A stretch of 43,879 nt of DNA from an uncultured Mycoplasmatota bacterium (GCA_947365915.1 CANAXT010000006.1:1-43879); one strand, 5' to 3'. Positions 5,935-15,797 are shown, counted from the stretch's first letter. Made by a program: numbers and translations. The notes: generated by a model not told the origin, from the sequence alone.

Positions 5935-6795
5935 ATGAAAAGATTATATGGTATCAGGTATGATCCGCTTTTTAAAAAAATTTTCTTTGAAAAAGAGAAT
6001 CTAAAAAAAATAATGAAAGATTTGTTTCATGAAGACTTAGAAACATTTCATTATTCAAAACAAGAATTACCAAAAGGGAACGTAAATTTACAAAGTGGAG
6101 TTTGTGATATGGTAATGAAAAGTAGAAAAAGAATTCTGTTATTGGAAATTCAGAATAAAGATTTGAAAAATCTGATTGAAAGAGTGAAATATTATTCTTC
6201 AGAATTTTATGCCAATCAAAATCCAGGAAAAGATTATAAACAATTATTGCCAGTGGAGGTATATTTGATTATCAATTTTTCATTTGGAAAAAATCAGGTA
6301 TTAAAAGAATATGAAGAATTTGAAAGAACATTAAAAGAACAATTAGGAAATGTATCAAAAATCAAAATTTGGAATATCAAAGCAGCATTAAAAGAAAAAG
6401 AAGGATTAAATTATGATTATGCTAGACTTTTCACTTTAGATGATGAAGATGCAAAAGAAAAAGGAAAAATTGTAATAGAAGAATTAAAAAATAAAAAAGA
6501 ATTAAAACATATTGTGAAACAAATTATATATTATAGCAAAGACAAAAAAACATATCAAAGGTTAAGGGAGGTAGAGAAAATGGAAATGACGTTTGAACAA
6601 GCAACAGCAGGATTTCGTAGAGAAGGAATTGAAATCGGCGAAAAGAGAGGCGTAAAAATGGGAGAAAAGAGAGGAAAACTAAAAACTGCTCTTTCAATGT
6701 TACAAGAAGGTTTAGAAATATCATTAATTGAAAAAGTAACTGGGTTAACAGAAAAACAGATTAGAAATAGTGGGCAAGAGCTTAGTAGAAAATAG
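5935..6795 (+). CDS. Rpn family recombination-promoting nuclease / putative transposase
   Basis: A 286-residue protein of the Rpn/PDDEXK_2 family. Studied members are DNA endonucleases that stimulate recA-independent recombination. The N-terminal YDPLFKKIFF (9-18) is the family's usual opening. The nuclease core shows D58 (GVCDMVM) and E71-x-Q73 (LLLEIQNKD), the E-x-Q variant typical of Rpn proteins. The tail carries the family's Gly/Glu repeats (EGIEIGEKRGVKMGEKRG) and a short helical end. Frame and length are intact. The start follows AAGGAGG and a perfect promoter. Imperfect inverted repeats of about 97 bp flank the gene. Confidence 0.9.
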   Translation: MKRLYGIRYDPLFKKIFFEKENLKKIMKDLFHEDLETFHYSKQELPKGNVNLQSGVCDMVMKSRKRILLLEIQNKDLKNLIERVKYYSSEFYANQNPGKDYKQLLPVEVYLIINFSFGKNQVLKEYEEFERTLKEQLGNVSKIKIWNIKAALKEKEGLNYDYARLFTLDDEDAKEKGKIVIEELKNKKELKHIVKQIIYYSKDKKTYQRLREVEKMEMTFEQATAGFRREGIEIGEKRGVKMGEKRGKLKTALSMLQEGLEISLIEKVTGLTEKQIRNSGQELSRK

Positions 6796-7149: not shown

Positions 7150-9141
7150 ATGAAACAATTAGATGAATTAAAGGGGCTAGGTCCTAAAACAAAAAATCTA
7201 TTATCAAAGATGGGAATCTTGAATTCTAGAGATTTACTTTTTTATTATCCTTTTCGTTATGATGTGTTAAAAAGAAGTGATATTCGTGAACTACAGCAAG
7301 ATGATAAGATTATTATTGATGGAGTGGTAGAAACTGTTCCTTCAGTATTTCATATTAATCGTAAATTGGATAAGATGAATTTTCGTTTTCAAGTGGATGG
7401 AAGAGTTGTTCAAGTTATTATTTTTAATCGTGGTTTTTTAAAGAGTAAGTTATTAGTGGGAATGGCTATTACAGTGATTGGTAAGTATGATTTAAAACAT
7501 AATACTATTGTTGCTAGTGATATTCGGCTTAGTGCTTTGCCAGATGCTCCAAAAATAGATCCTGTTTATCATTCTTATTATGGTGTTAGTCCTAAACAGA
7601 TTCGATCTTATTTGTTTCAAATTTTGTCAGAACCGATTGATGTGGTTGATTATATTCCTGAAGCGCTGTGTGAAAAATATCAATTTATGAGTAAGAAGCG
7701 AAGTTTAGAGTTGATTCATTTTCCAAAGAATTTTGGGTTGCTCAAATCAGCTTTATCTAGGGCAAAATATGAAGAGTTATTTTTGTTTATGCTTAAGATG
7801 AATTATTTAAAGAAAAAGAAGCAACATTCTGTTGGTTTAAAAAGAGAAGTTTCTTTTGAGGAAGTGGAGTCTTTTATTTCTAGTTTGCCTTTTAATCTTA
7901 CTGATGATCAGTTTTCTTGTGTGAAGGAAATTTATCAAGATTTGACTGATTCAAAACGGATGAATCGGTTGGTACAAGGTGATGTTGGAAGTGGGAAAAC
8001 CATTGTCAGTTTTGTTGCTATGTATATGAATCATTTGAGTGGCTATCAGAGTGCTTTGATGGCTCCAACTGAGATTTTAGCGCGTCAACATTATAAGAAT
8101 CTGATGAATATTTTTGAACCTTACAATATTTCGATTGCTGTCCTTACAGGAAAAACAAAGGCGAAAGAAAAACGAGAAATTTATGAAGGACTCAAAAATG
8201 GGAGTATTTCAATTGTTGTAGGAACACATGCTTTGATTAGTGAGGCTGTAGAGTATCAAAATTTGGGGTTAGTAATTACAGATGAGCAACATCGTTTTGG
8301 GGTGAATCAAAGAAATTATCTGAATAATAAAGGAATGACTCCTGATATTTTATATATGAGTGCGACTCCGATTCCTCGGACTTATGCGCTTACGATCTAT
8401 GGTGATATGGATGTTTCTAATATTCATACGATGCCAAATGGACGGTTGCCAGTGATTACAACGCTTAAAAAAAATAGTGAGATTCGGGAAGTATTAGAAA
8501 GTATGTATCAAGAGTTAAGGGCTGGAAGACAGGCTTATGTGATTGCGCCTCTTATTGAAGAGAGTGATAAAATTGATCTGGAAAATGTGACCATTTTGGA
8601 GTCTAAGATGAAGCGAGCTTTTGGAAAGTTATATCAAATTGGTGTGTTACATGGAAAGATGTCAGCTCGTGAAAAAGAGGAAGTGATGCTTCGTTTTGAA
8701 AAAAATGAGATTCAGATTTTGATTAGTACGACTGTAGTGGAAGTTGGTGTTGATGTTGCGAATGCGACTATGATGGTGATCTTTGATAGTGAACGTTTTG
8801 GATTATCTGCTTTGCATCAGCTTCGTGGAAGAGTGGGAAGAAGTAGTTTACAATCTTATTGTATTTTGATTAGTGATCATGAAAAGGAACGACTTTCTAT
8901 TTTGACACAGACTACAGATGGTTTTCAAATTAGTGAGGAAGATTTTAAGTTACGTGGAAGTGGTGATTTGTTTGGGGTTCGACAGAGTGGGGATATGCAG
9001 TTTCAGATCGCTGATTTAAAAAAAGATTTTTCGATTTTGATGCGAGCAAAAGAGGATAGTGAGACTTATATTACCAAGGGAAAGTTAGAGGAAAATCCAA
9101 TTTTAAAGGAATATATTGAAAAAACGCAAACATTGGCGTAG
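7150..9141 (+). CDS. recG: ATP-dependent DNA helicase RecG
   Basis: Superfamily 2 helicase that rewinds stalled replication forks and branch-migrates junctions. The 663 residues include an N-terminal wedge/OB domain (about 1-150; LKGLGPKTKNLLSKMGI is the usual opening). The helicase core has Walker A GDVGSGKT at 277-284, the DEQH box at 378-381, and motif VI QLRGRVGRS. The C-terminal LRGSGDLFGVRQSG stretch is typical of RecG. The ATG at 7150 gives the normal family start; the upstream Shine-Dalgarno is weak (GGTGA) and the leader is very short. The gene stands alone between two probable small-RNA genes. Confidence 0.97.
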   Translation: MKQLDELKGLGPKTKNLLSKMGILNSRDLLFYYPFRYDVLKRSDIRELQQDDKIIIDGVVETVPSVFHINRKLDKMNFRFQVDGRVVQVIIFNRGFLKSKLLVGMAITVIGKYDLKHNTIVASDIRLSALPDAPKIDPVYHSYYGVSPKQIRSYLFQILSEPIDVVDYIPEALCEKYQFMSKKRSLELIHFPKNFGLLKSALSRAKYEELFLFMLKMNYLKKKKQHSVGLKREVSFEEVESFISSLPFNLTDDQFSCVKEIYQDLTDSKRMNRLVQGDVGSGKTIVSFVAMYMNHLSGYQSALMAPTEILARQHYKNLMNIFEPYNISIAVLTGKTKAKEKREIYEGLKNGSISIVVGTHALISEAVEYQNLGLVITDEQHRFGVNQRNYLNNKGMTPDILYMSATPIPRTYALTIYGDMDVSNIHTMPNGRLPVITTLKKNSEIREVLESMYQELRAGRQAYVIAPLIEESDKIDLENVTILESKMKRAFGKLYQIGVLHGKMSAREKEEVMLRFEKNEIQILISTTVVEVGVDVANATMMVIFDSERFGLSALHQLRGRVGRSSLQSYCILISDHEKERLSILTQTTDGFQISEEDFKLRGSGDLFGVRQSGDMQFQIADLKKDFSILMRAKEDSETYITKGKLEENPILKEYIEKTQTLA

Positions 9142-9143
9142 TC

Positions 9144-9172
9144 TTGACAAAACATTTTTTTTGCTGTATAGT
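9144..9172 (+). promoter_or_regulatory. Strong promoter directly after recG
   Basis: TTGACA at 9144-9149 and TATAGT at 9167-9172, spacer 17, beginning three bases after the recG stop codon. No coding frame follows; the structured segment 9179-9280 does. Confidence 0.75.
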
Positions 9173-9178
9173 GATAAT

Positions 9179-9280
9179 AGCGTGATAGATGTCACGCAGC
9201 ATGATGGCTTACTGTTTTGAAAATGTGAGTCATCACCAAAAAACCCCCTGAAATCCTAGCCGAGAGGCTAGGATACTTTT
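9179..9280 (+). ncRNA. Probable small structured RNA with terminator
   Basis: Downstream of a near-consensus promoter lie three hairpins: GCGTGA/TCACGC (9180-9185 with 9192-9197); an 11-bp stem 9202-9212 with 9225-9235 containing two G-T pairs; and a terminator ATCCTAGCC/GGCTAGGAT (9253-9261 with 9266-9274) closed by a GAGA tetraloop and followed by ACTTTTG. No open frame of useful size fits. The terminator region is repeated at 13643-13686 without the first two hairpins. Class not recognised. Confidence 0.6.
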
Positions 9281-9396
9281 GTTATTATGAATTAATTTTA
9301 TTTAGAATCATTACAAAAAAGTTTAAAAAGTGTTTAAAAAAGTTTAGAAAAATGATGCCTAAAACAGTATAAAATATAATAATAAAATGGTATAAT
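9247..9396 (+). repeat. Intergenic repeat B, copy 1
   Basis: The first 44 bases (9247-9290) are identical to 13643-13686 and contain the GAGA-capped terminator hairpin. A looser second half follows with shared blocks (AAAAAGTTTAAAAAGT; AAGTTTAGAAAAATGAT; CCTAAAACAGTATAAA) and a TATAAT at 9391-9396. In this copy the repeat leads into the ribosome binding site of the broken DUF1016 gene. Confidence 0.85.
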
Positions 9397-9414
9397 CTTT
9401 ATATAACAGGAGGC

Positions 9415-9720
9415 TAATAAAAAATTAGTTAATTTGTATTTTTATATTTGTAGAACATTGGAAGAAAATAGTAGTTGGGAAAATAAATTTATAGATAATG
9501 TAGCGATAGATTTAAAATTATTGTTTCCTGACTAAAAGGTTTTTCTGTTCGTAATTTAAAATATATGAAATCTTTTTATAATGAATATAAAGATGATGAA
9601 GAATTTGTGCAACTGGTAGCACAATTGCCTTGGAAGCACAATATTATTTTAATGTAGAAAGTGAAAAATAAAGAGATTCGCAAATGGTATATGAATCGAT
9701 GTTTAGAAGAGGAATTCTAG
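9415..9720 (+). pseudogene. Broken DUF1016 gene, N-terminal fragment
   Basis: After AGGAGG the frame reads NKKLVNLYFY..WENKFIDNVAIDLKLLFPD and stops at TAA (about 9532). A neighbouring frame then continues KGFSVRNLKYMKSFYNEYKD, LVAQLPWKHN and, after an in-frame TAG at about 9656, KNKEIRKWYMNRCLEEEF to a TAG at 9718. These segments match the N-terminal domain of the intact gene at 1342 (KGFSERNLNYMKLFYEEYKDDE; LVANLPWGHN). So there is a frameshift, a nonsense codon, loss of the nuclease domain and no start codon. It is a clear remnant. Confidence 0.85.
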
Positions 9721-9730
9721 ATCTAATAAA

Positions 9731-9912
9731 GATGATTTTACAGAAGATGATGCTTTAATGCTTGATAAATGAATAAAGAAAGAATAGAATTAACTGATGT
9801 TATTTTAGTTGTAAATGTTGGTGGTTATATTGGAAATAGTATAAGTAAAGAAATCGAATTTGCTAAATTATTAGATAAAGAAATAATGTGTTATATTGAT
9901 TTTAAAAAGTAA
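9731..9912 (+). pseudogene. Remnant of a small nucleoside deoxyribosyltransferase-like protein
   Basis: The frame reads DDFTEDDALMLDK and hits TGA. One base out of frame it continues MNKERIELTDVILVVNVGGY, then IGNSISKEIEFAKLLDKEIM, ending at TAA 9910-9912. The pattern (xx-D-VILVVNVGGYIG-S-xx-EIEFA) is the core of small Rossmann-like proteins related to nucleoside 2-deoxyribosyltransferases. One missing A in the run before ATG (9769-9771) would restore the frame. The 47-residue downstream part could still be translated but lacks the N-terminal half. Family assignment is from memory of the motif. Confidence 0.55.
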
Positions 9913-9958
9913 AAAGAGAAAATGGCAAAAAAAATAAGCACTATGATTGTCATTTATG

Positions 9959-9984
9959 AATTGGTCAGTCACGACTGACCAATT
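9959..9984. repeat. Perfect palindrome upstream of DUF1016 copy 2
   Basis: Arms AATTGGTCAGTC and GACTGACCAATT flank a 2-base centre (AC). The distance to the ATG at 9999 is 14 bases, so the palindrome ends just before the ribosome binding site. The central TCAGTC-AC-GACTGA shares a core with the palindrome at 13900-13925. It may be an operator or a leader hairpin. Confidence 0.9.
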
Positions 9985-9998
9985 GGAAAGGAATTGTT

Positions 9999-11009
9999 AT
10001 GTTAGAAGAAAATAATAAAATGGTTAATGAAATAACAACATTAGTAAATGAAGTAAAATCTAAGTTATCAAAAGAAATTAATAATTCGATAGTTTATGTT
10101 TACTGGAACATTGGTAGAATTATAGTATCAAATGAGAATGAGTACAATAATCGTTTGGAATATGGTAAAGAAGTGCTAAAAGGGTTATCAAATGATTTGA
10201 CTAAATTTTTAGGTAAAGGGTATTCTTATACTAATTTAAAATATATGAGAATTTTTTATAAAACTTATCCTAAATTTGAAGAAATAAGTTCTGAATTATC
10301 TTGGACTCATTATAATGAGTTAATCATAATTAAAGATGATGCTAAAAGAAAATTTTATCAAAAAGAATGTATTAATTCGCATTGGAGTGTAAGAGAACTT
10401 CGAAGACAATTAAATACTTCATTATATGAAAGATTATTGCTTTCTGATGGAAAATTAAATAAAGAAAAAGTTTTAGAGTTATCTAAAAAAGGACAAGTAT
10501 TAGCTAAACCTAGTGATTTAATTAAAGAACCTTATGTATTTGAATTTTTAGGTATTAAAGAACAAAAGCCTTTATTAGAAAAAGATTTGGAGTATAAATT
10601 AATTAAACATATTGAAGATTTTTTACTAGAACTTGGAAAAGGATTTATGTTTGTTGGTAGTCAACAAAGAATAACTTTAAATAATACTAATTATTATGTG
10701 GATATGGTTTTTTATAACAAATTTTTAAAGTCTTATGTTTTAATTGATTTAAAAATGAATAATTTAAAAGCAGAAAACTTAGGACAAATGAATTTATATC
10801 TTAATTATTATGAGCAAGTTGTTAATGATGAAAATGATAACAAGCCAATAGGAATTATCTTATGCACAGAAAGAGATAATGTAATGATGGAGTTTGCTTT
10901 GAATGGTATTTCAAATAATTTATTTACCTCAACATATACATATTATATTCCTGATAAGGAACAATTAATAAAAGAGGTAGAGAAAGTTTTAAATGATAAT
11001 GACAATTAA
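9999..11009 (+). CDS. DUF1016 (YhcG-type) PD-(D/E)XK nuclease-fold protein, copy 2
   Basis: A 336-residue intact member of the YhcG/DUF1016 family, predicted nuclease, role unknown. The N-terminal helical domain has YSYTNLKYMRIFYKTY (75-90) and LSWTHYNELI (100-109). The nuclease domain has D235 in YYVD and IDLK with D250 and K252, then LGQMNLYLNYYEQ (261-273). The acidic residue before LK is Asp here and Glu in copy 1; from memory both occur in the family. It shares little close identity with copy 1 and so represents a second subtype. The start is fixed by AAAGG and by its match to the truncated start at 13941. A perfect palindrome precedes it. Confidence 0.9.
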   Translation: MLEENNKMVNEITTLVNEVKSKLSKEINNSIVYVYWNIGRIIVSNENEYNNRLEYGKEVLKGLSNDLTKFLGKGYSYTNLKYMRIFYKTYPKFEEISSELSWTHYNELIIIKDDAKRKFYQKECINSHWSVRELRRQLNTSLYERLLLSDGKLNKEKVLELSKKGQVLAKPSDLIKEPYVFEFLGIKEQKPLLEKDLEYKLIKHIEDFLLELGKGFMFVGSQQRITLNNTNYYVDMVFYNKFLKSYVLIDLKMNNLKAENLGQMNLYLNYYEQVVNDENDNKPIGIILCTERDNVMMEFALNGISNNLFTSTYTYYIPDKEQLIKEVEKVLNDNDN

Positions 11010-11072
11010 AATAAGCCAAAATGAAATTATTTAAAGTACGAAAATAATTAAAGAAAGTGAGAGATTAGTATA

Positions 11073-11858
11073 ATGAATGAATATGAAAACTATTTACAAT
11101 TTGCAAAAGAAATAGCAAATGAAGCAGGATTAATCATGAAGAAATATTTTTCAAGAAAAGATATCTCTTCATATAAAGGAGATAAAACAATTGTTACTTT
11201 AGCAGATAAAGAAATAAATTCTTATTTAATAAAAAGAGTTAAAGAAGTATTTCCAAATCATTCTGTTGATGGAGAAGAAGAACAATTTGGAGAAAGTAAG
11301 TATGTATGGGTATGCGATCCAGTCGACGGAACTGCGATGTATGCAAGAAATATACCAGTAGCAGTATTTTCCTTAGCATTAGTAATAGATGGAGTATCAA
11401 CTATTGGAGTTATTTATGATCCATTTACTGACAATTTATATTCAGCAATTAAAGGACAAGGAGCTTATCAAAATGGAGAAAAGATGTCTGTAAATGATTA
11501 TGAATTGGAAGATATGAAAAGTGTATCCCATTTTGATATGTGGCCTGAAGCTGAATATAATATTTTTCCTGCATTACAAGAATTAGGAAAGAAAACATAT
11601 TTTATTGGATTAGGAAGTATAATTAGAGCTTGTACTTGTGTTGCAAGTGGAGAGTTTATTTTGGCTATATTTCCTGGAACAACTCATAAGAATTGTGATA
11701 TTGCGGCGGCAAAGGTAATTGTAGAAGAAGCTGGGGGAAAAGTAACAAACTTATTTGGCGAGGAACAAAGATATGATAAAAGTATAAAAGGTGCTGTAAT
11801 AAGTAATGGTAAAGTTCATAATGAAGTTATAAATACTATAAAAAATATTTGGAGGTAA
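11073..11858 (+). CDS. Inositol monophosphatase family phosphatase
   Basis: A 261-residue Mg2+/Li+-dependent phosphatase of the FIG superfamily, which acts on inositol phosphates, 3'-phosphoadenosine nucleotides or histidinol phosphate; the substrate cannot be told from sequence. Metal-site motifs are present: GEE near 68-70, DPVDGT at 82-87, and CDIAAAKVIVEEAGG with D209. The residue before that Asp is Cys where many relatives have Trp. It is separated from the following SDR by six bases, so the two are likely co-transcribed. It lies within the accessory island between DUF1016 and MazG genes. Start ATG at 11073 follows GTGAGAG. Confidence 0.85.
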   Translation: MNEYENYLQFAKEIANEAGLIMKKYFSRKDISSYKGDKTIVTLADKEINSYLIKRVKEVFPNHSVDGEEEQFGESKYVWVCDPVDGTAMYARNIPVAVFSLALVIDGVSTIGVIYDPFTDNLYSAIKGQGAYQNGEKMSVNDYELEDMKSVSHFDMWPEAEYNIFPALQELGKKTYFIGLGSIIRACTCVASGEFILAIFPGTTHKNCDIAAAKVIVEEAGGKVTNLFGEEQRYDKSIKGAVISNGKVHNEVINTIKNIWR

Positions 11859-11864
11859 AATAAT

Positions 11865-12533
11865 ATGAAAGATATTCTTATAATTACTGGTGGCTCTAAT
11901 GGTTTGGGAAAGGCAATAGTAGAATATTCTCTAAATATAGATTTATTAGTCTGTAATTTAGATAGAGAAAAATCTGTTATTAATAATATAAATTACAAAG
12001 AATTTATAGGAGATATTTCTGATGAAAAATTCGTTAAGGGGACTATTAAAGAGATTTATAAATTAGGTAACATTAAACATTTGATAAATAATGCAGGAGA
12101 ACCATCTTTTAAATTACCTACTGAATATGAAAAAGATGATATAGAAAAATGTTTTAAAGGATTACAAGGAATGATACTGTGTTCTGCAAATACTTTAAAG
12201 ATAAAAAATGAACAAGATTTAAAAATAGTAAATATAATGTCATCTGCAGCATTAAGAGGAAATAAGCAAGAGTCAGTTTATTGTGCCACTAAGTGGGGAG
12301 AAAAAGGATATACTGAAAGCTTAAAAGTAGCATATAAGGGAACATCAGTAAAGATAATTGGCGTGTATCCAGGAGGAATTAATACAGATTTTTACAAAAA
12401 TAATAGAGATTATGTATCAGAGGAAAAACAAAATACTTTTATGAATCCAAATGATGTTGCTAAAATAATTTGCGATAGTATATTTAGTAATTTAAATTTA
12501 AATGTAGCGGATATAATTATTGAGAGAAATTAA
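11865..12533 (+). CDS. Short-chain dehydrogenase/reductase (SDR)
   Basis: A 222-residue NAD(P)-dependent oxidoreductase with a Rossmann fold. The cofactor loop is TGGSNGLG at 8-15, NNAGE follows at the usual spacing, and the catalytic pair is Y139-C-A-T-K143. It ends soon after the substrate loop, so it is a compact classical SDR. The substrate is unknown. The start follows GGAGG with good spacing, six bases after the phosphatase, suggesting a two-gene operon. Confidence 0.88.
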   Translation: MKDILIITGGSNGLGKAIVEYSLNIDLLVCNLDREKSVINNINYKEFIGDISDEKFVKGTIKEIYKLGNIKHLINNAGEPSFKLPTEYEKDDIEKCFKGLQGMILCSANTLKIKNEQDLKIVNIMSSAALRGNKQESVYCATKWGEKGYTESLKVAYKGTSVKIIGVYPGGINTDFYKNNRDYVSEEKQNTFMNPNDVAKIICDSIFSNLNLNVADIIIERN

Positions 12534-12545
12534 GGAGATAATTAT

Positions 12546-12593
12546 ATGGATAGAAATTTTGCAGAACAATGGTTAAATAATTTAAAACAATAA
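12546..12593 (+). pseudogene. 15-residue open frame, probably the stump of a deleted gene
   Basis: After the SDR stop there is AAGGAG, eight bases, then ATG and the frame MDRNFAEQWLNNLKQ followed by TAA. The ribosome binding site is very good for so short a frame, which suggests the 5' end of a longer gene whose body was lost, though a genuine small peptide cannot be excluded. Confidence 0.35.
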
Positions 12594-12606
12594 TAGAGTG
12601 TGGATT

Positions 12607-13503
12607 ATGAAAGATTTTATAGATTGTTTAAATACTTTATCAAGTAGAGAATGTGCTACAATTATTTGGCTTTTAATTTTATTAATATATATACTAAAAA
12701 ATGAAAAAACAAAAGATTCTTTTTTAGAGGTTATTAAAATATTATTTGGGAAGAATTTAATAAAAATATGGTTAGTAACTTCTTTGTATGTATTTATAAT
12801 AACTTTTCTATTTTCAAAAACAATAATTTGGGATAATTTGTATATAAAAGACATTATTGTATGGTTTATTACTTCAGGAATAATATTTTGTTTTAATGCG
12901 GCTTCTAAAGAAGCTGATGAGCAATATATTTGGAAAGTAGTAAAAGATAATTTAAAATTCACAATTGTTATAGAATTTATTTATAGTACTTTTACTTTTA
13001 GATTTTGGGTAGAGTTATTAATTATACCTATTATAACTATTTTAGCAATGGTAGATGCTTATGCTGAAAGAAAGGAAGAATATTATATTGTTCATAAGTT
13101 TATGCAAGGAGTTTTTGCAATTATTAGTATTTGGTTTTTCTATGAAACTTTTAAAATCGGATTACAAGAATACAAAGAATTAAATGTTTTAAATACTTTT
13201 GTAAGTTTTATGATTCCTATTGTCTATTTAATTTTGATTCTACCATTAGAATATATAATAGAGTTATATTGCAAGTATGAAATATTGTTTATTAAGTTAT
13301 TTTTTAAAAATAATACAGATAAAAAAGTAAATAGAAGGCGTAAATTACTAATAATTAAGGAATGTGGTTTTTCAGTACATAATGTCATACTATTTCGAAA
13401 AAATTATTGTAGCAAAATTTACAAAAAAATGACTGATGATGATTTTAAGTTATTAATAAATGATTTTAATAAAGAAAAAAAGAAAAATAACAAGATAGCT
13501 TAA
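12607..13503 (+). CDS. Multi-pass membrane protein of unknown function
   Basis: A protein of 298 residues from the ATG at 12607 (a GTG at 12598 would add three). About six hydrophobic segments are visible, e.g. TIIWLLILLIYIL, KIWLVTSLYVFIITFLF, IIVWFITSGIIF, FWVELLIIPIITILAMV, FAIISIWFFY and FMIPIVYLILILPLEYIIEL. The C-terminal 70 residues are basic and probably cytoplasmic. I recognise no catalytic motif. The ribosome binding site is weak. It lies in the accessory island after the SDR. Confidence 0.75.
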   Translation: MKDFIDCLNTLSSRECATIIWLLILLIYILKNEKTKDSFLEVIKILFGKNLIKIWLVTSLYVFIITFLFSKTIIWDNLYIKDIIVWFITSGIIFCFNAASKEADEQYIWKVVKDNLKFTIVIEFIYSTFTFRFWVELLIIPIITILAMVDAYAERKEEYYIVHKFMQGVFAIISIWFFYETFKIGLQEYKELNVLNTFVSFMIPIVYLILILPLEYIIELYCKYEILFIKLFFKNNTDKKVNRRRKLLIIKECGFSVHNVILFRKNYCSKIYKKMTDDDFKLLINDFNKEKKKNNKIA

Positions 13504-13529
13504 AATATAATTCAACTACCTTTTCAACT

Positions 13530-13624
13530 ATCAAAATTTTAAAATTCATATAATACTAATTAAATCTAAGCATTTTTAAATCTATTAAAATAAAGGTAAA
13601 AATACTTAAATAAACTTTGAAGTG
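13530..13624 (+). repeat. Intergenic repeat A, copy 2
   Basis: Second copy of the block at 1220-1313; the first 23 bases are identical and the rest is divergent but alignable. Here it is joined to repeat B with only about 18 bases between, whereas at 1220 it stands alone before an intact DUF1016 gene. Confidence 0.8.
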
Positions 13625-13642
13625 CGTGAACTCCAACCGCCT

Positions 13643-13776
13643 CCTGAAATCCTAGCCGAGAGGCTAGGATACTTTTGTTATTATGAAAAAAGTTTAAAAA
13701 GTATTAATTTTGAATAAAAAAGTTTAGAAAAATGATACCTAAAACAGTATAAATAATGCATTTAAAATGATATAAT
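13643..13776 (+). repeat. Intergenic repeat B, copy 2
   Basis: Bases 13643-13686 are identical to 9247-9290, including the hairpin ATCCTAGCC/GGCTAGGAT (13649-13657 with 13662-13670) with a GAGA loop and ACTTTTG after it. The second half shares shorter blocks and a TATAAT at about 13771-13776. The two B copies are direct repeats about 4.4 kb apart enclosing DUF1016 copy 2, the phosphatase, the SDR and the membrane protein. Confidence 0.85.
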
Positions 13777-13899
13777 GTTAATGTATTGCAAAAGAAAAAA
13801 CATAAAGTAATGATTAAATTAATATACTTATATATTAAAGCAAAAGACAGAAAAGAATAGTATTTATCCTAAAATTTATTGTTATGATGTCACTAAATG

Positions 13900-13925
13900 A
13901 ATTCTTCAGACATGTCTGAAGAATT
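13900..13925. repeat. Perfect 26-bp palindrome before a DUF1016 gene stump
   Basis: Arms AATTCTTCAGACA and its exact reverse complement, with no spacer. It ends 15 bases before an ATG (13941) after an AAGGAGG site. The central TCAGAC-AT-GTCTGA has the same form as the palindrome at 9959 (TCAGTC-AC-GACTGA); outer AATT ends are also shared. Confidence 0.9.
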
Positions 13926-13940
13926 TAAGAAGGAGGAAAT

Positions 13941-13985
13941 ATGTTAGAAGAAGTTGATAATAAAATAGTGAGTGGAAGAAGATGA
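13941..13985 (+). pseudogene. Stump of a DUF1016 gene start, overlapping the MazG-like gene
   Basis: ATG after AAGGAGG reads MLEEVDNKIVSGRR and stops at TGA, overlapping the next start (ATGA at 13982). Its DNA closely matches the first codons of DUF1016 copy 2 (MLEENNKMVNEI), allowing a three-base insertion. The likeliest reading is that a DUF1016 gene was deleted and its promoter, palindrome and start now lead into the MazG-like gene. It may act as a short leader peptide that couples translation. Confidence 0.6.
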
Positions 13986-14338
13986 ATAAAATGAAAAAAG
14001 AAGAATTAGCGGATGAATTAAGTCGAATTAATGTTAATAGTAATTTAAGTGAAATTCAACAATATATTACTCAGATGATGAAAATTAATGGTTTTCATAA
14101 TACACCTTTGGAATTATTTTGTTATTTTACTGAAGAGGTTGGAGAATTAGCAAAAGAAATTAGAAAAAAAGAAAAAAATATGGATATGGATAAGCAGCGA
14201 GAATATACTTCTTGTTTAGAACATGAAATAGCTGATGTATTTATATATTTATTAGCTCTATGTAATTCATATCATATCGATTGGTTAAGTGCTTTTAAGG
14301 AAAAAGAGATGATTAATTTGAATAGAGTTTGGAAGTAG
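13982..14338 (+). CDS. MazG-like nucleotide pyrophosphohydrolase
   Basis: A 118-residue all-alpha NTP pyrophosphatase of the MazG/dUTPase-like superfamily, which hydrolyses (d)NTPs to the monophosphate and pyrophosphate. Metal-binding motifs are visible: EEVGE at 51-55 and E82-x-x-D85 in HEIADVF. Length fits a single-domain member. The ATG overlaps the stop of the short frame at 13941 (ATGA), implying translational coupling. The next gene, 13 bases downstream, is a uracil-DNA-glycosylase-like protein, so the pair may deal with damaged or non-canonical nucleotides; that role is inferred. Confidence 0.85.
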   Translation: MNKMKKEELADELSRINVNSNLSEIQQYITQMMKINGFHNTPLELFCYFTEEVGELAKEIRKKEKNMDMDKQREYTSCLEHEIADVFIYLLALCNSYHIDWLSAFKEKEMINLNRVWK

Positions 14339-14351
14339 GAGAGAAAATCAA

Positions 14352-15065
14352 ATGACAAAAGAAATAAAATTTTCGGATCGTGTGTTAGAATTTAATGCAT
14401 GGTTAGCGAATATATCTTTCGATTTATTTGATCATTATTGTATTCGTAACCCATTTAGTGGTGAAGATAAAGAAAAAATTAAAGAGATTACAAGTATGTT
14501 CTATCAAAAATATTATCATGATAATCATAAAAGATGTTTAATACTTGGTAGTTCTCCAGCTCGGAGAGGTACTGCAGTAACAGGTATTCCATTTGAAGAT
14601 GCTAGTCATCTTTATCAAGAAACTGGTATTATGATTGATGATTTTTATATTCAAAAAAACTCTTCTAATTTTTTGTATGATGTTATGGAGCAATATGGTG
14701 GATGTCAAAAATTTTATGAAGATTTTTATATGAATTTTGTATGTCCTCTTGGTATTGTCAATGTCAATTCAAAAGGAAATGAAGTAAATTCAAATTATTA
14801 TGAAAATAAAAAATTAGAGAATATGTTGTATCCTTTTATTGTTGAATCTTTAAAAAAGCAGATTTCTTTTGGAATTGATACTTCTATCTGTTATTGTATT
14901 GGAAGTGGTGAAAATTTTAAATTTTTAACTAAAATTAATGATCAATATCATTTTTTTAATCAGATTGTTGCATTAGAGCATCCAAGATTTATTATGCAAT
15001 ATCATTCGAAAGATAGAGATCAATATTTAGATAAATATCTTGATGCTTTAAATTATAAAGACTAA
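14352..15065 (+). CDS. SMUG2/DUF4918-type uracil-DNA glycosylase family protein
   Basis: A 237-residue protein with the two signature regions of the SMUG2-like (DUF4918) branch of uracil-DNA glycosylases: GSSPARRGTAVTGIPF at 66-81 (family form G-x-NPGRxGAGxTGxPF) and HPRFIMQY from about 210. Family members are predicted to excise uracil or related bases from DNA. The first motif is altered here (SSPA for INPG), so activity may differ. It is co-directional with the MazG-like gene and follows GGAGAG. Confidence 0.8.
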   Translation: MTKEIKFSDRVLEFNAWLANISFDLFDHYCIRNPFSGEDKEKIKEITSMFYQKYYHDNHKRCLILGSSPARRGTAVTGIPFEDASHLYQETGIMIDDFYIQKNSSNFLYDVMEQYGGCQKFYEDFYMNFVCPLGIVNVNSKGNEVNSNYYENKKLENMLYPFIVESLKKQISFGIDTSICYCIGSGENFKFLTKINDQYHFFNQIVALEHPRFIMQYHSKDRDQYLDKYLDALNYKD

Positions 15066-15092
15066 AGTAATAAAAAAACATTTGTATCTTAA

Positions 15093-15311
15093 GCAGTTAG
15101 TAGAAACATTGAGAGATTTCCTAAAGATTTTTATTTTCAGCTAACTAAAGAAGAATATGGTAACTTGAAGTTCCAAAATGGAACTTCAAGTTTCAGTAGT
15201 CATGGTGATGCCTCCATAAGTCATGGTGGTGCTAGGACTTTTAGTATTAATATATTAGAAGATAAAGAAATATGTGGAGCACTTAAAAATAAAATAAAAA
15301 AGGGCTGTTAG
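15093..15311 (+). pseudogene. ORF6N-domain protein fragment
   Basis: The frame reads AVSRNIERFPKDFYFQLTKE, then EYGNLKFQNGTSSFSSHG, then a Gly-Gly-Ala-Arg segment, ending at TAG 15309-15311. RNIERFP-x-DF-x-FQLTKEE is the hallmark of ORF6N domains, found in phage-type DNA-binding proteins. The N-terminal part and the expected FTEQGV region are missing, and no start codon or ribosome binding site fits. The fragment holds a perfect 13-bp inverted repeat (15162-15192). Confidence 0.75.
15162..15192. repeat. Perfect 13-bp inverted repeat inside the ORF6N remnant
   Basis: AACTTGAAGTTCC at 15162-15174 and GGAACTTCAAGTT at 15180-15192, separated by AAAAT. It lies within sequence that still encodes recognisable ORF6N residues. 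Confidence 0.9.
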
Positions 15312-15345
15312 GAGATTAATTATCTAATTTTCTGACAGTCCTTTA
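15298..15345 (-). terminator. Long bidirectional terminator between convergent genes
   Basis: Bases 15300-15311 pair with 15332-15343 (two G-T pairs), and the stem continues inward (15313-15318 with 15325-15330). On the minus strand it is followed by a T-rich run, so it mainly ends the gene at 15357-15797. Confidence 0.8.
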
Positions 15346-15356
15346 TTGTTTATGAT

Positions 15357-15797
15357 TTATAAAAATTGTTTGAGTTTTTCCACAGCTTTTTCTTGCATAC
15401 TCACATATTTTTGGACTAATTCATGAACATTCTTTTCTGTGTTTTTGTGGTTTAATAGTTTTCTTCCTTCGATAATTCCCATGTTTGTTCCTTGAAGTAA
15501 TAATTCGGCAATTTTAGAAGTACTATTATCTAGTAGTGTTTTCATTTCAATTCCATACCAAGTCATGGCTTTATTCATCATGTTTGTTTTATGTGGTTCA
15601 TCTTCGTTGTTGTATTCAGGATATAGATTTTTAATTTCTTCTGAAATTTCTTTATATTCTCTATATTGACGATCTAATTCAGTTTTAAGTGATTCGTCCT
15701 TGACCTTATCTAAAATATAATGAATGGCATCCATTCCCATACATGTTCCTTTGTTTAATTCATCTAAAATGTTGATTTCATTTTGATCATTGTTCAT
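15357..15797 (-). CDS. Small helical protein, ferritin-like type, unknown function
   Basis: A 146-residue protein rich in charged helices (ILDELNKGTCMGMDAIHYIL; MTWYGIEMKTLLDNSTSKIA; LLLQGTNMGIIEGRKLLNH). The pattern of four helices, GxxMGxxxI and a late NMGI motif recalls small ferritin-like/DUF2383-type proteins of Firmicutes, but I see no convincing diiron ligand set. The start follows AAAGGAGG on the minus strand. It is divergent from the gene at 15915 and marks the right edge of the accessory island. Confidence 0.75.
   Translation of the reverse strand: MNNDQNEINILDELNKGTCMGMDAIHYILDKVKDESLKTELDRQYREYKEISEEIKNLYPEYNNEDEPHKTNMMNKAMTWYGIEMKTLLDNSTSKIAELLLQGTNMGIIEGRKLLNHKNTEKNVHELVQKYVSMQEKAVEKLKQFL

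What the first reader, a model, noticed from the sequence alone, without database searches (positions are those of the whole stretch)
9959..13985. Perfect palindromes with a shared core sit 14-15 bases before DUF1016 gene starts
Seen: 9959-9984 (12-bp arms, AC centre) and 13900-13925 (13-bp arms) are both perfect, both end in AATT and both have a TCAGWC-NN-GWCTGA centre. Both stop just before the ribosome binding site of a gene beginning MLEE. In the first case the DUF1016 gene is intact; in the second only 14 codons remain and MazG/SMUG2-like genes follow. Outer arms differ and the core is kept, as expected of a binding site or processed leader hairpin that is conserved in form. Known: DUF1016 proteins are PD-(D/E)XK nuclease-fold proteins without an established role. 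Inference: the palindrome belongs to the DUF1016 module as autoregulatory operator, leader hairpin or cleavage/recombination site.
Basis: partly seen in the sequence, partly recalled or inferred. Interest (0 to 1): 0.75.

Follow-up and report, generated by a model that had tools for sequence, protein, structure and literature searches.

The report
Self-linked palindrome before ParB-like nuclease genes
A 26-base mirror-image DNA site sits just before one lineage of an uncharacterised bacterial nuclease gene and changes in step with the nuclease's DNA-reading domain, so it is most likely the site where the protein binds to control its own gene.

Summary
Both palindromes are real, perfect and not due to chance. 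A third lies elsewhere in the genome, before another decayed DUF1016 start. All 40 relatives that are at least 76% identical and have upstream DNA carry the site AATT-NN-TCAGAC-RY-GTCTGA-NN-AATT (A/T exchange at one symmetric position in the window clade), ending 12-19 nt before the start codon. In 291 genomes of the family, 11 of 12 exact cores lie before a DUF1016 start or its remnant. A distant DUF1016 clade (35% identity) carries a symmetric variant with the same CAGAC-RY-GTCTG core. Most other DUF1016 genes, E. coli yhcG included, lack it.

The predicted DUF1016 N-domain matches ParB/Noc/Spo0J DNA-binding domains, which bind palindromes as dimers. The clade with changed operator bases 5/6 has seven clade-specific amino-acid changes, all in residues 44-92 around the predicted recognition helix; lineages that kept the operator have 6 of 71 there. 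G.U and A.C mismatches are equally common, so RNA pairing is not favoured.

Best reading: an autoregulatory operator bound by the DUF1016 dimer. Binding and repression are inferred, not shown. The gene travels with its palindrome, so a role in mobility is the main rival.

The parts
9959..9984 (.). Palindrome P1, AATTGGTCAGTC-AC-GACTGACCAATT, proposed DUF1016 operator (TCAGTC type)
   Evidence: orthologues with the same type in L045-L048 and G142
9942..9947 (+). -10-like hexamer TATGAT, 11 nt before P1; TATAAT in relatives L046 and L047
   Evidence: sequence; relatives
9985..9998 (+). 14-nt spacer with RBS (GGAAAGG) between P1 and the ATG
9999..11009 (+). Intact DUF1016 / YhcG gene (PADLOC PDC-S02), 336 aa
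9999..10433 (+). DUF1016_N domain, predicted ParB/Noc-like helix-turn-helix domain (residues 1-145; match about 27-142); recognition helix about residues 77-89
10515..10967 (+). PD-(D/E)XK nuclease domain YhcG_C (residues 173-323); D235 and K252 invariant in 72 sequences, D250 nearly so
13900..13925 (.). Palindrome P2, AATTCTTCAGACA/TGTCTGAAGAATT (TCAGAC type)
13940..13984 (+). 14-codon remnant of a DUF1016 gene start
   Evidence: similar to the starts of L082, L068 and others
9244..9412 (+). Terminator plus leader of a different DUF1016 type (C10 type, no palindrome of this kind)
9424..9720 (+). Decayed DUF1016 gene of C10 type (several stops)
   Evidence: intact in congener G142 at the same place after recG
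13521..13785 (+). Two older DUF1016 leader remnants (1342 type at 13521-13613, C10 type at 13640-13785) stacked before P2
1342..2343 (+). DUF1016 gene of another clade, no palindrome in its leader (negative comparison)

Best explanation
The palindrome is the DNA operator of the DUF1016 protein itself. Two copies of the protein bind the two half-sites through their ParB/Noc-like N-terminal helix-turn-helix domains. Because the site lies between the -10 element and the RBS, the bound dimer blocks transcription and keeps a potentially harmful PD-(D/E)XK nuclease (a candidate anti-phage gene) at a low level. Shown: the conserved, symmetric, gene-linked site, and its covariation with the N-domain by clade. 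Predicted: the ParB-like fold and the nuclease fold. Inferred: binding, dimerisation, repression and the defence role.
For: Site: 40 of 40 relatives at 76% identity or more score 19-22 of 22 against the consensus (99.9th percentile of shuffles 16); palindrome conservation 0.83 against 0.35-0.41 upstream. Specificity: 11 of 12 exact cores in 291 genomes at DUF1016 starts or remnants. Wider: clade D (35% identity) AATTTTGCAGAC-RY-GTCTGCAAAATT; Fusobacterium (44%) ATTCCACAGACACTGTCTGTGGAAT. Protein: the N-domain model (pLDDT 88.8) has ParB/Noc chains as its first 11 Foldseek hits (each E 0.28 or more) and ParB/Noc/Spo0J at ranks 1-12 by VIA-align, Z 7.4-6.0, rmsd 2.9-4.0; HTH_ParB reaches its Pfam cut-off on one DUF1016 gene and matches 53 of 72 members weakly. 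Covariation: the CT/TT-operator clade has 7 of 7 specific changes in residues 44-92, operator-keeping lineages 6 of 71; the window clade with the A-to-T change at position 11 has S103T and C106N, which align with ParB G201 and R204, both parS contacts (PMC7383237). Not RNA-like: about 12 G.U and 11 A.C asymmetry events; centre purine-pyrimidine in all 40 subfamily A sites.
Against: No binding or expression data. The covariation rests on two clades and is confounded by descent; in subfamily B the same recognition helix is found with both GG and TT arms. Most DUF1016 genes lack the site, and subfamily B has mostly lost it, so it is not needed for DUF1016 function in general. The -10 to palindrome distance varies (5-56 nt) whereas the palindrome to start-codon distance is tight (12-19 nt), more like a unit glued to the gene than a site placed on a promoter. 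HTH_ParB, hhalign and Foldseek scores are each individually weak.
Confidence: 0.62

Rival explanations
1. The palindrome is the nuclease's own cleavage or recombination site and drives spread of the gene (homing-like or gene-conversion-like), so palindrome and gene travel as one unit.
For: The unit palindrome + gene (often with its promoter) is shared at 90-99% DNA identity between contigs whose flanks are unrelated; homology often starts between about -7 and -50 of the palindrome and ends within about 50 nt of the stop codon. Palindromes persist beside truncated or frameshifted genes (13900, C7:15785, L131, L072, L097, L099). Leaders of different DUF1016 types are stacked at 13521-13985.
Against: The site is intact beside every subfamily A gene copy, not split or duplicated at both ends. 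There are no dispersed empty sites (11 of 12 cores are at DUF1016 starts or remnants). The homology boundaries are not fixed at the palindrome. No 3' counterpart was seen.
Confidence: 0.15
2. The palindrome is an RNA hairpin in the leader transcript (translation control, or processing by the nuclease).
For: It ends just upstream of the RBS and could form an 11-bp stem of about -11 to -14 kcal/mol. A -10-like element upstream suggests that it is transcribed.
Against: Mismatches are about as often A.C as G.U (about 11 to 12 events), while RNA pairing should favour G.U. Stem bases are conserved as sequence, the would-be loop is C-RY-G with no known tetraloop (own knowledge), and the hairpin leaves the RBS free.
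Confidence: 0.1
3. It is the operator of a different regulator (host or mobile-element repressor).
For: The site looks like an ordinary dimer-binding palindrome near a promoter.
Against: One exact core per positive genome, linked to this gene subfamily, in many genera; arm type follows the DUF1016 protein clade. A separate regulator would be expected to have other targets.
Confidence: 0.09
4. The symmetry is kept by mutation (template-switch correction of quasi-palindromes), without selection.
For: Such correction is a known mutational process (own knowledge, not tested here) and would give matched arm changes.
Against: It does not explain the conserved core sequence across wide protein divergence, the position before the RBS, or the link with residues 44-92.
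Confidence: 0.04

Closest known systems
ParB-parS and Noc-NBS (ParB/Noc DNA-binding domain family)
   Same: Predicted N-domain fold, dimer-type palindromic site, possible tuning of site specificity through the recognition helix and the GHAR-like helix (compare PMC7383237).
   Different: No sign of the CTP-binding ParBc domain (not searched for separately); fused to a PD-(D/E)XK nuclease; one site linked to its own gene instead of origin-proximal or dispersed sites; 26-bp element with AATT ends and a CAGAC-RY-GTCTG core.
DUF1016 / YhcG family (Pfam PF17761 + PF06250; PADLOC PDC-S02 candidate defence gene)
   Same: Full-length member, active-site residues conserved.
   Different: A linked palindrome is found only in a subset of the family, and no published role or binding site was found in the library searched.
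Autoregulatory operators of restriction enzymes and their controller (C) proteins
   Same: Palindrome between promoter and RBS of a nuclease gene, expected to limit its expression (own knowledge).
   Different: No separate controller protein: the proposed DNA reader is a domain of the nuclease itself; no methyltransferase beside the window gene.

Membership tests
DUF1016 / YhcG (PDC-S02) | DUF1016_N followed by YhcG_C above Pfam cut-offs | tested here: met
   138 and 184.5 bits against cut-offs of 32.8 and 32.5
DUF1016 / YhcG (PDC-S02) | Intact PD-(D/E)XK active site | tested here: met
   D235 and K252 invariant, D250 at least 90%, in 72 sequences; fold match to EndoMS Z 8.9
DUF1016 / YhcG (PDC-S02) | Anti-phage activity | not testable with these tools
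   PDC-S02 is only a candidate from genomic context
ParB/Noc DNA-binding domain | Helix-turn-helix domain fold of ParB/Noc | tested here: met
   VIA-align ranks 1-12 all ParB/Noc/Spo0J, Z 7.4-6.0, rmsd 2.9-4.0, 90-100 residues; best unrelated row Z 4.8. Predicted model and Z below 8, so moderate evidence
ParB/Noc DNA-binding domain | Pfam HTH_ParB sequence match | tested here: inconclusive
   Over cut-off in one DUF1016 gene (23 against 22.6 bits); weak in 53 of 72 members, best E 0.0029; hhalign collinear but P 0.014-0.03
ParB proteins (whole) | ParBc CTPase domain | not tested
   Pfam scans list only DUF1016_N and YhcG_C above cut-off; no dedicated search was made
Autoregulatory operator | Palindrome overlapping the promoter or early leader of the regulator's own gene | tested here: met
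   40 of 40 subfamily A loci, between a -10-like element and the RBS where one is seen
Autoregulatory operator | Bound by the gene's own product, with repression | not testable with these tools
   needs binding and reporter assays
Homing or transposable unit | Defined ends, empty target sites, site split by insertion | tested here: not met
   boundaries vary; no dispersed sites; site intact beside the gene in all 40 subfamily A loci
RNA leader hairpin | Preference for G.U over A.C among imperfect pairs | tested here: not met
   about 12 against 11 events, grouped by eye

The most novel reading that the evidence does not exclude
DUF1016 is a ParB-like DNA reader fused to a nuclease, and its leader palindrome is a parS-like loading or targeting site that also promotes replacement of resident DUF1016 genes by incoming ones, so the nuclease spreads its own gene into existing DUF1016 leaders while autoregulating.
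Probability: 0.13. Interest if true: 0.85.

Novelty: new variant of a known kind. Interest (0 to 1): 0.62.

Why it matters
DUF1016/YhcG is a widespread nuclease family with no established role. A defined DNA site, a predicted reader domain and natural site/protein variants give it a first direct test: which protein binds which palindrome. It would also be a case of a ParB-type domain steering a nuclease, useful for understanding how candidate defence nucleases are kept in check and how they move between gut bacteria.

Tried and rejected
Regulon or dispersed target sites: the exact core occurs once per positive genome and at DUF1016 genes or remnants; the only solo site is G052:C7:3497. Viral targets: no match to the two site types in viral contigs. 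General rule for all DUF1016 genes: not supported (a strong palindrome in 33 of 40 subfamily A leaders, but 3 of 39 subfamily B and 5 of 79 others), and E. coli yhcG, Nostoc, Legionella, Proteus and Hymenobacter leaders have none. Perfect retention beside the C7 pseudogene as proof of selection: left open, since the time since gene loss is unknown. Solved homologue by sequence: none. First full-length structure model: C-terminal half poor, so the N-domain was modelled alone. Rfam: no match in 8900-15500. Orthologous P2 locus in the genus: the UDG gene is absent from the five congeners.

Full report
OBSERVATION. Both are 26 nt, both leave 14 nt before an ATG, and aligned they share AATT-NN-TCAG-W-C-A-Y-G-W-CTGA-NN-AATT. 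Perfect palindromes of this size do not occur in 30 dinucleotide shuffles of the window. Gene 9999-11009 is a full DUF1016_N + YhcG_C protein. After 13900-13925 only 14 codons of a DUF1016-like start remain. A genome search with up to two mismatches found one more site, C7:15785-15810, with 14-bp arms, 15 nt before a decayed DUF1016 start. The genome has 11 DUF1016 hits, intact and decayed; the others have no such site (the minus-strand leaders were re-read).

RELATIVES. A scan of genome contigs gave 80 DUF1016 loci. All 40 at 76% identity or more with upstream DNA have the site, scoring 19-22 of 22 fixed positions, against 16 for the 99.9th percentile of shuffled leaders. Conservation is an island: 0.83 within the palindrome, 0.35-0.41 in the 80 nt before it. 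Start codons follow 12-19 nt after it. Among subfamily B (62-66%), 8 of 39 have a site of 18 or more, often degraded. In 291 genomes of the family the exact core TCAGACRYGTCTGA occurs in 12: 8 before DUF1016 genes listed, one before a gene cut by the contig end, two before remnants (13900 in the window, L131) and one alone. No viral contig has the site.

WIDER FAMILY. A distant clade (35% identity to the window protein) carries AATTTTGCAGAC-RY-GTCTGCAAAATT at the same place in L327, L332 and L333, with imperfect copies in L324 and L249. One Fusobacterium gene (44%) has ATTCCACAGACACTGTCTGTGGAAT 23 nt before its ATG. Nostoc, Legionella, Proteus, Hymenobacter and E. coli yhcG have nothing comparable. 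The association is therefore real but limited to parts of the family.

PROTEIN. The N-terminal domain alone gives a confident model (mean pLDDT 88.8). Its first 11 Foldseek matches are all ParB or Noc, though each is weak on its own (E 0.28 or more). VIA-align places Noc, Spo0J and ParB chains at ranks 1-12 (Z 7.4-6.0, rmsd 2.9-4.0, 90-100 residues), including complexes with parS and NBS DNA; the best unrelated row has Z 4.8. The full-length model gave the same N-domain matches, and EndoMS-type nucleases for the C-terminal half (Z 8.9). By sequence, HTH_ParB passes its cut-off on one DUF1016 gene, matches 53 of 72 members weakly, and hhalign gives a collinear but weak alignment. I found no paper that says this, but the library is partial.

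COVARIATION. The tree shows three operator types: TCAGTC with GG arms (window clade, 5 proteins), TCAGAC with mostly RG arms, and TCAGAC with CT/TT arms (one clade of 15). The CT/TT clade has 7 clade-specific fixed changes in 336 residues, all in 44-88, three of them in the predicted recognition helix (81, 85, 88). Lineages that kept the RG operator have 71 specific changes of which 6 fall in 44-92; the hypergeometric chance of 7 of 7 is about 7e-7 (my own calculation, with the region chosen after seeing the data). The window clade has S103T and C106N, aligned with ParB G201 and R204, which contact parS (PMC7383237). In ParB the recognition helix residue 173 reads base 1 of the half-site and residue 201 reads base 6, nearer the centre; the changes here fall in the same order (helix with outer bases 5/6, residues 103/106 with inner base 11). 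Both are single clades, so descent is a confounder, and subfamily B does not follow the rule.

DNA OR RNA. Among imperfect pairs, about 12 independent G.U and 11 A.C events were counted by eye against the tree (outermost and innermost positions left out), with no clear preference for pairs that RNA would tolerate. A raw count of distinct subfamily A sites does lean to G.U (23 to 8), but ten of those are the outermost position, where the base varies freely, and several others are one inherited change. The centre is purine-pyrimidine in all 40 subfamily A sites. The hairpin could form (-11 to -14 kcal/mol), so RNA is disfavoured, not excluded.

MOBILITY. Pairs of loci share palindrome and gene at 90-99% DNA identity with unrelated flanks, but the boundaries vary. 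The window records several rounds: 9244-9720 is the leader and decayed body of a C10-type DUF1016, which is intact at the same place after recG in congener G142; 13521-13985 stacks leader remnants of three DUF1016 types. Palindromes remain beside broken genes. This keeps a mobility role open.

CONCLUSION. The site belongs to a DUF1016 lineage and is most likely read by the protein itself as an operator (confidence 0.62). Binding, repression, cleavage and defence were not tested here.

Noticed in passing
window 9142-9290: After recG there is a promoter-like stretch, a long hairpin whose arms seem to covary, and a terminator, present in four of five congeners (L294-L297) before variable cargo genes; candidate non-coding RNA with no Rfam match.
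   Followed up: partly
window 13521-13985: Stack of three DUF1016 leader remnants of different clades without gene bodies.
   Followed up: partly
L332 and L333 leaders; parts in L249, L250: A second palindrome TGATATTGGTAAACCAATATCA lies 50 nt before the ATG, upstream of the CAGAC palindrome.
   Followed up: no
L062, L063, L064, L072 leaders: Another imperfect palindrome (TTCCA...TGGAA) precedes the main one; L252 has a TTCCARCC-AAT-GGYTGGAA site directly before its RBS.
   Followed up: no
L009, L160, L164, L167: Another DUF1016 clade has ACATAAGA-WW-TCTTATG shortly after a TATAAT element.
   Followed up: no
L028 / L090: Two AATACG...CGTATT repeats, one within and one after a TTGACA-TATACT promoter-like pair, before a subfamily B DUF1016 gene.
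   Followed up: no
G000:C7:15785-16186: Mosaic: the palindrome resembles that of L121 while the gene body is nearest L110 (84% DNA identity).
   Followed up: partly
L309 (Cetobacterium plasmid), L308 (Segatella plasmid): DUF1016 gene between type I restriction-modification M and S subunit genes, or next to a DNA methyltransferase gene.
   Followed up: no
G052:C7:3497 (L127): Solo palindrome with the exact core TCAGACATGTCTGA and no recognisable DUF1016 start.
   Followed up: partly
window 5935-6795: A PD-(D/E)XK family transposase-like gene (PDDEXK_2) in the same window.
   Followed up: no
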